The position numbers and the translations under genes are program-made. A DNA stretch of 64,000 nt from Psychromonas sp. CD1 (GTDB lineage: Bacteria; Pseudomonadota; Gammaproteobacteria; Enterobacterales; Psychromonadaceae). Location of the stretch: positions 372,001 through 436,000 of the forward strand of contig NZ_NDFH01000003.1 in the NCBI RefSeq assembly GCF_002239585.1. Direction: 5' to 3'. This document shows, in pieces, positions 17,526-43,961 of this stretch (positions are counted from its first letter, which is position 1; every line of letters begins with the position of its first letter). Under the pieces are notes generated by a model. It made no database searches. It saw nothing but the letters and a program-made list of their open reading frames with translations, and was not told the DNA's origin.

Positions 17526-17789
17526 GTGGCAGTTATCATTAAATATATAGTTGAAAGAAAAGGTGTTGAAAAAATGACCTTTAGCAGTAAAAAAGAAGCG
17601 GATGCTTACGATAAAATGCTTGATAGTGCAGATCAGTTAGCTGCTTTTTTAGCGCAAAGTTCTGTAACATTAGATGAACTACAACTCGAAGAATTGGGTT
17701 TATATTTGGCCAGCAATAAAGAGGTTGTACAAAGTTTATTTAAAGGCAACGATTTCCAAGCTCAGAGTAAAGAACAAGAATCAGAGTAG
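17526..17789 (+). CDS. yebG: YebG family SOS-inducible protein
   Basis: The 87 residues match YebG: VIIKYIVERKGVEKMTFSSKKEADAYDKMLD and the following helix-rich segment. Its molecular function is not known. The start is GTG; AGAGG lies five to ten bases upstream. The LexA-like box just upstream fits the SOS regulation known in E. coli. The last 12 residues are Gln/Glu/Lys-rich and variable. Confidence 0.9.
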   Translation: MAVIIKYIVERKGVEKMTFSSKKEADAYDKMLDSADQLAAFLAQSSVTLDELQLEELGLYLASNKEVVQSLFKGNDFQAQSKEQESE

Positions 17790-17933
17790 GCGAATAATAA
17801 ATAAGATTTTAATTCTGACTACATATTGCAAAGCTATGCTATTACTTTAAAATACCCTTTCGTTTTATTCAAATTATCGTGAAAGTATCGCGATACATCT
17901 CTTAATGTGCTTTGAATATATAAATTTATGCAT

Positions 17934-17954
17934 ATGCTTCTTGGTTTGAAGCAT
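17934..17954 (+). promoter_or_regulatory. thrS translational operator mimicking the tRNA-Thr anticodon arm
   Basis: A 7-bp stem (ATGCTTC with GAAGCAT) closes a 7-nt loop TTGGTTT. In tRNA numbering the loop has U at 33 and GGU at 34-36, which is the anticodon of tRNA-Thr(GGU). The GGU lies 32-30 bases before the ATG. E. coli ThrRS represses its own mRNA by binding an anticodon-like hairpin in the thrS leader, so this is probably the same type of operator. A further palindrome, GTATCGCGATAC, lies upstream at 17885-17896. Confidence 0.75.
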
Positions 17955-17974
17955 CACTGTGAAGGATATAATAC

Positions 17975-19882
17975 ATGCCAATAATAACGCTTCCCGACGG
18001 TAATCAACGTCAATATGATAATTCAACGTCTATTTTAGAAATCGCTGCCGATATTGGACCTGGTCTTGCTAAAGCATGTATAGCAGGGCGGGTTAACGGA
18101 GCCTTAGTTGATGCTTGTGATCGCATAGATACCGACGCAAATATTTCAATTATCACTGCAAAAGATGATGCGGGTTTAGAAATCTTACGGCATTCTTGTG
18201 CACATTTGTTGGGGCATGCCATCAAGCAACTTTATCCAAATGCTAAAATGGCAATAGGACCGACTATCGATAATGGTTTTTATTATGATATTGATGTCAA
18301 CGTTGCGATTAATGATGAAGAATTAGCCAAAATTGAAAAACGCATGAATCTATTGGTTAAAACAAATTATAAAGTTGTTAAGAAAAACGTGTCGGTAGCT
18401 GATGCGATTGCGCTATTTAAAGAGCGTAATGAGCCTTACAAATTAGAAATTCTTGATGGGATTCATCCGGACGATCGTCCTGGGCTTTATTATCATGAAG
18501 AATATGTAGATATGTGTCGTGGTCCACATGTGCCGATGATGAAGTTTAGCCAGTATTTTAAACTCATGAAAGTGGCGGGAGCATATTGGCGCGGAAATTC
18601 TGACAATAAAATGTTACAGCGTATTTATGGTACTGCATGGGCAGATAAAAAACAGCTAAAAGCTTATTTAAAACGTTTAGAAGAGGCTGCAAAACGCGAC
18701 CACCGTAAAATAGGTAAACAGTTAGATCTTTACCATATGCAAGAAGAAGCTCCGGGTATGGTTTTTTGGCATGCTAATGGTTGGACCATCTTCCGTGAAT
18801 TAGAAAAATATATAAGAGAACAAACAGAGGCTTATGGTTATCAAGAAGTCAAAGCCCCACAGATTCTAGATCGCTCTTTATGGGAAAAATCAGGACACTG
18901 GGGAAAATATAAAGATAATATGTTTTGCACTTGTTCTGAAAATCGTGATTATGCGATCAAGCCAATGAATTGTCCTGGGCATGTGCAGATATTTAATCAT
19001 GGTTTAAAATCTTATCGTGATTTACCTCTGCGTATGTCTGAATTTGGCTCTTGCCATCGTAATGAACCCTCTGGGTCGTTACACGGTTTAATGCGTGTCC
19101 GTGCTTTTACACAAGATGATGCACATATTTTCTGTACAGAAGCACAAATATTCGATGAAGTATCGTCGTGTATTAAAATGGTGTTTGAATGTTATAAAAC
19201 ATTTGGTTTTGAAAATATTGCCGTGAAGTTGTCAACCCGCCCAGATCAACGTGTGGGTGATGATGCGACTTGGGACAAAGCAGAAGCTGCTTTAGCGAAT
19301 GCTTTGACTAAAAATGACGTTGATTTTTCATGGTTACCGGGTGAAGGCGCTTTTTATGGCCCAAAAATTGAATTTACATTGCATGATTGTTTGGGTAGAG
19401 CTTGGCAGTGTGGTACTATCCAATTAGATTTCTCCATGCCTGGTCGTTTAGGCGCTACATTTGTTGGCGAAGATAACGAACGACATACTCCTGTTATGAT
19501 ACATCGTGCGATTTTAGGTTCATTAGAACGCTGGATTGGTATTTTAACAGAAGAATATGCGGGCATTTTTCCGACGTGGTTATCACCTCAACAAGTTGTA
19601 GTGATGAATATTACGGATAAACAGTCCAAATATGTGGTTGAAGTTGTAAATAAATTGAAAAAATCGGGTGTTCGTGTCATTTCTGACTTGAGAAATGAGA
19701 AGATAGGCTTTAAAATCCGTGAACATACTTTAAAACGTGTTCCATATTTACTGGTTGTCGGTGATAAAGAAGTTGAAGCTAATGAACTCTCGATTAGAAC
19801 ACGTAAAGGTGATGATTTAGGTAAGTTTAAAGTGGAAGACTTTATTACTTACATTAAAGAAGAAATTGTCACTCGTCGATAA
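17975..19882 (+). CDS. thrS: Threonyl-tRNA synthetase
   Basis: Charges tRNA-Thr with threonine. The 635 residues show the N-terminal TGS domain (start [16 protein letters not shown]), the editing domain with [16 protein letters not shown] and [11 protein letters not shown], the class II catalytic core with zinc ligands in [15 protein letters not shown] and [15 protein letters not shown], and the C-terminal anticodon-binding domain. GAAGGA lies before the ATG, just after the operator hairpin, so bound enzyme would block ribosome entry. infC follows 22 bases after its stop. Confidence 0.98.
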
Positions 19883-19904: not shown

Positions 19905-20447
19905 ATAAAAGGTGCAAGAAAATCCCCACAGCAGGGTAATAAACATCGTTTGAATGAAGAGATCACTGGTCACGAAGTTCGTTTATCAGACTCAGAAGGC
20001 AAACCATTAGGTGTTGTTTCGCTTGAAGAAGCTAAAAATTTAGCATTTGATCAAAATTTGGATCTCGTGGAGATCAGTCCAAATGCTGAGCCACCAGTTT
20101 GTCGGATCATGAATTATGGCAAGTTTCTCTATGAGAAAAGTAAATCCGCTAAAGAACAGCGGAAGAAACAGGTTCAAGTCCAGCTGAAGGAAATAAAATT
20201 CCGTCCTGGAACTGATGAAGGCGATTATCAGGTAAAACTACGCAACCTGACTCGCTTTTTAACTGAGGGAAACAAGGCTAAAGTAACGCTACGCTATCGT
20301 GGTCGTGAAATGGCGCATCAATCACTTGGATTAGTTTTACTAAACCGTATCAAAGCGGATTTAGCTGAAATATCTAATGTCGAATCTTTCCCTAAAATGG
20401 AAGGTCGTCAAATGGTGATGATACTTGGCCCTAAACGTGCTAGCTAA
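19905..20447 (+). CDS. infC: Translation initiation factor IF-3 with AUA start codon
   Basis: Prevents subunit re-association and proofreads the start codon on the 30S subunit. The open frame also reaches an upstream TTG, but alignment with the E. coli start (AUU AAA GGC GGA) places the start at ATA AAA GGT GCA (19905). GGAGG lies at 19892-19896, 8 bases upstream, and the protein is then 180 residues, exactly the family length. IF-3 genes normally start with AUU and are autoregulated because IF-3 rejects such codons; AUA should serve the same purpose. Core motifs [21 protein letters not shown] and [19 protein letters not shown] are intact. Confidence 0.93.
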
Positions 20448-43873: not shown

Positions 43874-43961
43874 GGTGACGTGTCCGAGTGGCTTAAGGAG
43901 CACGCCTGGAAAGTGTGTGTACGGTAACGTACCGAGAGTTCGAATCTCTCCGTCACCGCCA
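43874..43961 (+). tRNA. tRNA-Ser (anticodon GGA)
   Basis: 88 nt with acceptor arms GGTGACG and CGTCACC, a D arm, anticodon stem CACGC/GTGTG with loop CTGGAAA (GGA at 43908-43910), a long type II variable arm (ACGGTAACGT), T loop TTCGAATC, discriminator G and encoded CCA. The anticodon reads UCC and UCU. A 7-bp A/T-rich hairpin follows. Confidence 0.97.

What the first reader, a model, noticed from the sequence alone, without database searches (positions are those of the whole stretch)
17934..17954. thrS leader hairpin is a tRNA-Thr(GGU) anticodon-arm mimic
The sequence shows a 7-bp stem and a 7-nt loop with the same size and U33-anticodon layout as a tRNA anticodon arm. The anticodon positions read GGU, a tRNA-Thr anticodon, placed at -32 to -30 from the ATG. 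E. coli thrS has a hairpin in its leader with a Thr anticodon-like loop (reading CGU) at about this distance. The use of GGU rather than CGU suggests co-variation of operator and tRNA isoacceptor in this lineage.
Basis: partly seen in the sequence, partly recalled or inferred. Interest (0 to 1): 0.75.

Follow-up and report, generated by a model that had tools for sequence, protein, structure and literature searches.

The report
ThrRS operator hairpin upstream of thrS
The hairpin in front of the threonyl-tRNA synthetase gene copies the anticodon arm of tRNA-Thr so that the enzyme can probably shut off its own mRNA; this is the classic E. coli thrS switch in another bacterium, and the letter that differs from E. 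coli does not follow the tRNA set.

Summary
Window 17934-17954 is a 7-bp stem with a 7-nt loop UUGGUUU, GGU at -32 to -30 of thrS (635 aa). It is the only hairpin with 7 Watson-Crick pairs and such a loop in the 64 kb. It is conserved: 101 of 102 thrS leaders carry one, the helices covary, and a covariance model run over 281 genomes of the class gave 67 matches, 66 of them upstream of thrS. It is the anticodon-like arm (domain 2) of the E. coli thrS operator, by which ThrRS represses its own translation.

G34 instead of C34 is not co-variation with a tRNA isoacceptor. All four bases occur at 34; a Psychromonas with a CGU operator has no detected tRNA-Thr(CGU), and A34 operators occur where only GGU and UGU tRNA-Thr were found. 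What is fixed or nearly so is G35-U36 plus flanking A and CACU.

Known system, new member.

The parts
17826..17853 (+). Promoter-like TTGCAA-16-TAAAAT; would put the transcript start near 17859 (leader of about 115 nt)
   Evidence: Consensus scan, 9 of 12; 2 such sites found in 17700-18050, 2.0 expected by chance. A similar TTGCAA/TAAAAT stretch is in L084 (by eye). Inferred, not mapped.
17866..17918 (+). Extra upstream element seen only in the window and L084 among 22 Psychromonas; possible enclosing helix 17866-17873 with 17911-17918
   Evidence: By eye; the enclosing helix is not in the predicted minimum-energy fold
17875..17895 (+). Candidate second anticodon-like arm (counterpart of E. 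coli domain 4): UAUCGUG-AAAGUAU-CGCGAUA, AGU at 17884-17886
   Evidence: GU-loop hairpins enriched upstream of domain 2; window included; pair probabilities 0.81-1.0. Nearest relative L084 keeps a hairpin but no GU in the loop (by eye).
17919..17929 (+). A/U-rich linker (perhaps the counterpart of the U-rich upstream part of the E. coli bipartite ribosome site)
   Evidence: Sequence; role inferred from PMC3858243
17930..17932 (+). 5' side of the basal helix, pairs with 17958-17960; A17932 invariant in 87 of 87 distinct elements
17934..17954 (+). Anticodon-arm mimic (domain 2): stem 17934-17940 / 17948-17954, loop UUGGUUU 17941-17947, anticodon-like GGU 17943-17945
17955..17960 (+). CACUGU: CAC forms the 3' side of the 1x3 internal loop, UGU the 3' side of the basal helix; CACU in 87 of 87 distinct elements, the following G in 85
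   Evidence: in the 65 class leaders CACUG 62, CUCUG 2, CACUA 1
17962..17966 (+). Shine-Dalgarno AAGGA, 8 nt before the ATG
   Evidence: Sequence
17975..19882 (+). thrS, threonyl-tRNA synthetase, 635 aa (TGS, SAD, catalytic and anticodon-binding domains), the proposed repressor
   Evidence: N575, R583, E600, R609 of E. coli conserved

Best explanation
This is the thrS translational operator. Shown here: a conserved, covarying anticodon-arm-like hairpin on a short basal helix, with near-invariant A and CACU flanks, directly before the thrS ribosome-binding site, next to a ThrRS whose presumed anticodon-contact residues are conserved. Inferred by homology with E. coli: when ThrRS is in excess over tRNA-Thr, its anticodon-binding domain grips G35-U36 of the loop and the enzyme sits on the leader between the A/U-rich linker and the Shine-Dalgarno, so the 30S subunit cannot bind and thrS translation stops; rising free tRNA-Thr titrates the enzyme away. 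Base 34 is probably not read, so GGU, CGU, UGU or AGU serve alike. In this species a second arm upstream (17875-17895) may engage the other subunit; the other Psychromonas, L084 apart, appear to have a single arm.
For: Hairpin (>=6/7 pairs) in 100 of 101 thrS leaders against 4.1% of random stretches. Covariation score 0.605 against 0.238 shuffled (0 of 500 as high) and at most 0.143 when slid; the basal pair 6-36, not used to pick the hairpins, is paired in 79 of 87 with 24 double changes. Model R1 on 281 genomes of the class: 67 matches, 66 upstream of thrS. A profile without any Psychromonas (73 of 87 elements) still finds window 17927-17964 at E 3.1e-5, next hit 0.38. ThrRS matches E. coli 1qf6 over its length (1082 bits) and the sequence shared by 1kog (recalled as the operator complex); N575, R583, E600, R609 identical in 82 of 82 ThrRS. 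E. coli mechanism in print: operator of four domains, II and IV being hairpins that ThrRS recognises by likeness to the anticodon loop (PMC11088916, passages); ThrRS hinders 30S binding (PMC3858243, passages); specificity switched to MetRS by changing the anticodon-like triplet (PMC9976931, passages).
Against: No binding or expression data for this organism. The 221-nt leader folds no better than shuffles (z 0.28). Loop position 37 is U in all 22 Psychromonas leaders, unlike tRNA-Thr. A domain-4 counterpart is missing in most Psychromonas and doubtful here. Two of 102 leaders do not fit (L083 none, L073 doubtful). The hairpins were picked by pairing and by GU in the loop, so those properties are partly built into; the conserved CACU, the basal pair and the thrS position of the genome-wide matches are not. 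215 of 281 class genomes gave no match (strict filters, so absence is not shown).
Confidence: 0.93

Rival explanations
1. Operator and tRNA isoacceptor co-vary: GGU in the loop tracks the tRNA-Thr(GGU) pool of this lineage, CGU tracks tRNA-Thr(CGU) elsewhere.
For: A tRNA-Thr(GGU) gene is present in 5 of 5 sister Psychromonas genomes tried, and no tRNA-Thr(CGU) was found in 6 of 6, own included. C34 is common in enteric bacteria, and 6 of the 7 named genomes with a detected tRNA-Thr(CGU) are enteric (grouping recalled).
Against: G011 has a CGU operator (L089) and no detected CGU tRNA. 19 of 24 C34 genomes have no tRNA-Thr(CGU) by the exact pattern; a looser pattern on the same 50 genomes added no convincing one (the one candidate with a fully paired anticodon stem, in G328, and one in G329 were not called tRNA by ARAGORN). 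In the 8 of 22 genomes whose one-mismatch rows were printed in full, 6 with C34 and 2 with A34 operators, the tRNA-Thr rows are GGU and UGU only. The arms of one leader differ at 34 in 32 of 41. In the window's own, 79.9% complete, assembly only tRNA-Thr(UGU) was found.
Confidence: 0.04
2. A plain secondary structure near the ribosome site that tunes translation passively, with no ThrRS recognition.
For: The stem lies just upstream of the Shine-Dalgarno; no binding data exist for this species.
Against: A passive hairpin does not explain conserved G35-U36, A and CACU, nor an occurrence in 66 of 67 genome-wide matches at thrS.
Confidence: 0.03
3. A different known RNA regulator (T-box, riboswitch, attenuator).
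For: Aminoacyl-tRNA synthetase genes often have such leaders.
Against: No Rfam family reaches its threshold here; the only match in the window is a tRNA at 43874. No terminator-like site in 17700-18050. The E. coli leader itself has no Rfam match up to E 5.
Confidence: 0.01

Closest known systems
E. coli thrS translational operator (domains 1-4; domain 2 = anticodon-like arm)
   Same: Position before the Shine-Dalgarno, 7-bp stem, 7-nt loop with U33-N-G35-U36, 1x3 internal loop, basal helix, CACUG, thrS followed by infC and rplT (rpmI annotated in E. coli, not looked for here), ThrRS anticodon-domain residues.
   Different: G instead of C at 34, U instead of G at 37, one-base shift; the candidate second arm is a different sequence (AGU loop) and is not clearly conserved in the genus.
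tRNA-Thr anticodon arm (GGU isoacceptor, e.g. CACCC UUGGUAA GGGUG in sister Psychromonas)
   Same: 7-nt loop, U33, G34-G35-U36.
   Different: Stem sequence unrelated and 7 rather than 5 bp; positions 37-38 UU instead of AA.
Yeast RPC10 mRNA element bound by ThrRS
   Same: An mRNA hairpin resembling the tRNA-Thr anticodon stem-loop, bound by ThrRS (PMC9956033, passages).
   Different: Eukaryotic, in another gene's mRNA, proposed to act differently; no homology claimed.

Membership tests
thrS translational operator (E. coli type) | Lies in the 5' leader of thrS, just upstream of the Shine-Dalgarno | tested here: met
thrS translational operator (E. coli type) | Anticodon-like arm with 7-nt loop carrying G35-U36 | tested here: met
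   covariation
thrS translational operator (E. coli type) | Homologous by a model not containing the genus | tested here: met
   Hold-out sequence profile, E 3.1e-5 at 17927-17964
thrS translational operator (E. coli type) | Second anticodon-like arm (domain 4) upstream | tested here: inconclusive
   Present in form with AGU loop, but L084 lacks GU in the loop and the other 20 Psychromonas lack the element (by eye); chance level about 3% per leader (5.3 of 166 in shuffles)
thrS translational operator (E. coli type) | Cognate ThrRS with conserved anticodon-binding residues (N575, R583, E600, R609; list recalled) | tested here: met
   82 of 82 identical, window included
thrS translational operator (E. 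coli type) | ThrRS binds the leader, blocks 30S, and tRNA-Thr relieves it | not testable with these tools
   Needs binding, toeprint and reporter assays
T-box or other Rfam leader | Match to a family at its gathering score | tested here: not met

The most novel reading that the evidence does not exclude
The thrS operator is a set of interchangeable anticodon mimics in which only G35-U36 is read. Arms are gained, lost and tandemly copied across Gammaproteobacteria with base 34 drifting freely, so one leader may present GGU and CGU, or even AGU, for which no tRNA-Thr was seen in the six Psychromonas genomes searched. Most Psychromonas run a one-armed operator, and the window lineage has rebuilt a second arm from new sequence.
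Probability: 0.4. Interest if true: 0.5.

Novelty: new member of a known kind. Interest (0 to 1): 0.3.

Why it matters
It shows by comparison that the textbook E. coli thrS switch is spread through much of Gammaproteobacteria though it has no match in the Rfam copy searched, and separates what ThrRS probably must see (G35-U36, A, CACU) from what it does not (base 34, often U33, base 37). The natural one-armed and two-armed leaders, and tandem copies, allow a direct test of whether a dimeric synthetase needs two arms to repress.

Tried and rejected
Stability of the whole leader: no signal (z 0.28). Rfam with a loose threshold: three sub-threshold hits in the window region and none for the E. 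coli leader. Isoacceptor co-variation: rejected, see rivals. Family-level search returned the same 24 genomes as the genus search. L083 (an uncultured genome) has no hairpin; L073 scored as a hit but lacks CACUG and was left out of the alignment. Two loose-pattern tRNA-Thr(CGU) candidates were tested and not called tRNA.

Literature: in the listings of five searches (two searches listed 30 of 37 and 15 of 40 papers) I saw no title or abstract start that surveys the thrS operator across bacteria or its base 34; subscription papers are not held, so this is no proof of absence. A 2009 Shewanella leader screen (PMC2659441, term search of its text) mentions aspS and glnS but not thrS. Two original E. 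coli operator papers (PMC452390, PMC334396) are not held, so E. coli residues and numbering not quoted from a call are recalled.

Full report
Observation. The ORF is threonyl-tRNA synthetase with TGS, SAD, catalytic and anticodon-binding domains, matched over residues 1-634 to E. coli ThrRS 1qf6. Upstream lies yebG and downstream infC and rplT. In the 64 kb it is the only hairpin with seven Watson-Crick pairs and a U33-N-G-U loop (about 0.13 expected from base shuffles); with G-U pairs allowed there are seven.

Conservation. I took 102 thrS leaders: 80 named loci, 20 further Psychromonas, one E. coli and the window. With >=6 of 7 pairs and GU at loop positions 4-5, 101 of 102 leaders have the hairpin. 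Without E. coli it is 100 of 101 leaders, 90 of them with all seven pairs, against 4.1% and 0.5% of 29452 random 85-nt stretches of the same loci. L083 is the miss; L073 is a doubtful hit and was not aligned. The remaining 100 give 87 distinct 41-nt elements. Invariant in 87 of 87: A two bases before the stem, G35 and U36 (these two were selected for) and CACU after the stem (not selected for). The stem and a basal helix across a 1x3 internal loop covary: score 0.605 against 0.238 in shuffles, none of 500 as high, and at most 0.143 when partners are slid. Two of the five measures in that call, pairs with a change on both sides (51 of 500 shuffles as high) and further pair types (102 of 500), do not stand out.

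Genome-wide test. Model R1 was run on 281 genomes drawn over the class: 66 genomes gave 67 matches. The 30 best matches and 36 of the other 37 lie upstream of a thrS start; in L122 that start is about 150 nt further down. The window's own leader, which was in the model, is among the 30. In 199 genomes drawn over the phylum, 38 had a match, each of them in the window's own class; how many of the 199 lie outside the class is not shown, because 141 genomes without a match are not listed. Of the 23 listed genomes of the same order outside the genus 21 had it; the two misses are genomes of 1.0-1.1 Mb. The filters lose weak matches, so genomes without a match are not shown to lack the element. A sequence profile built without Psychromonas (73 of 87 elements) finds window 17927-17964 at E 3.1e-5, with the next hit at 0.38.

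What base 34 does. Over 166 leaders the base is C 76, G 69, A 11, U 10. U33 is not fixed either: 83 of 101 in the first set, 56 of 65 in the class set. In Psychromonas 21 of 22 read G34, and L089 reads C34. By an exact tRNA-Thr pattern, six Psychromonas genomes hold only GGU and UGU genes, among them G011, the genome of L089; ARAGORN calls all 15 matches tRNA-Thr. The window's own, 79.9% complete, assembly shows one tRNA-Thr(UGU) and no GGU gene even with two mismatches. In 50 named genomes (of 61 first submitted) 7 have a CGU gene by an exact pattern: 5 of 24 with a C34 operator and 2 of 26 with another base, p = 0.24. A looser pattern on the same 50 gave matches in 18 genomes, but the reversed control also matches in many and none beyond the seven is convincing; the best, in G328, and one in G329 are not tRNA by ARAGORN. 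A divergent CGU gene could still be missed. With one mismatch allowed in 22 genomes, the rows of 8 were printed in full; there, operators with C34 (6) or A34 (2) stand beside GGU and UGU tRNA-Thr genes only. So the isoacceptor idea is not supported.

Second arm. Upstream of domain 2, hairpins of >=6 bp with a 7-8 nt loop and GU in the anticodon place occur in 41 of 166 leaders, against 5.3 in dinucleotide shuffles; the commonest of the 15 other dinucleotides at that place reached 22. 27 of the 41 sit 48-64 nt before domain 2. E. coli is among them (AUUUAGC-AUUUGUUG-GCUAGAU). Others are Idiomarina GCGUUCG-AUGGUAC-CGAACGC, Dickeya GAUUUAAC-AAUUGUGG-GUUAAAUC and Pseudomonas CCUGCC-ACUGUGA-GGCAGG. 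Related leaders were not weighted down, and some of the 41, scattered in position, are likely chance. In 32 of 41 the two arms differ at base 34. One genome (L180) has two tandem copies including CACUG. The window has UAUCGUG-AAAGUAU-CGCGAUA at 17875-17895, predicted to fold. Its nearest relative L084 keeps a hairpin there, but with no GU in the loop, and by eye the other 20 Psychromonas have no such element. I therefore rate the window's second arm as possible only.

Mechanism. For E. coli, papers state that operator domains II and IV form two hairpins recognised by ThrRS through likeness to the tRNA-Thr anticodon loop and that binding blocks the 30S subunit (PMC11088916, passages; PMC3858243, passages), and that swapping the triplet to that of tRNA-Met moves control to MetRS (PMC9976931, passages). 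The window's ThrRS keeps N575, R583, E600 and R609 (E. coli numbering; their role as anticodon contacts is recalled), as do all 82 proteins aligned. The best reading is autorepression of thrS translation; binding and repression are inferred, not shown.

Verdict. A real and well-conserved element of a known kind in a new organism. What is added is comparative: breadth, absence from the Rfam copy searched, freedom of base 34, and coming and going of the second arm.

Noticed in passing
L196 1990-2031 (around G263:C18:33389-33430): A 42-nt copy (41 of 42 identical) of the same genome's own thrS operator lies between unrelated genes, just after a stretch that by eye looks like a tRNA 3' end (ARAGORN calls no tRNA there); possible decoy RNA or stray insertion.
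   Followed up: partly
L116, L121, L189 and other class leaders: A tRNA-Val(GAC) gene sits directly upstream of thrS (ARAGORN on these three loci; by eye in more), sometimes with a terminator-like hairpin between. Not so in the window.
   Followed up: partly
window 19905-19907: infC seems to start at an AUA codon (GGAGG a few bases before, then AUA AAA GGU), a rare start comparable to the AUU of E. coli infC (recalled).
   Followed up: no
L180, L181, L182, L189, L191, L194: Two anticodon-like arms lie close together before thrS (L180: two copies with CACUG); by eye.
   Followed up: partly
window 17526-17789: The gene upstream of thrS is yebG (Pfam PF07130).
   Followed up: no
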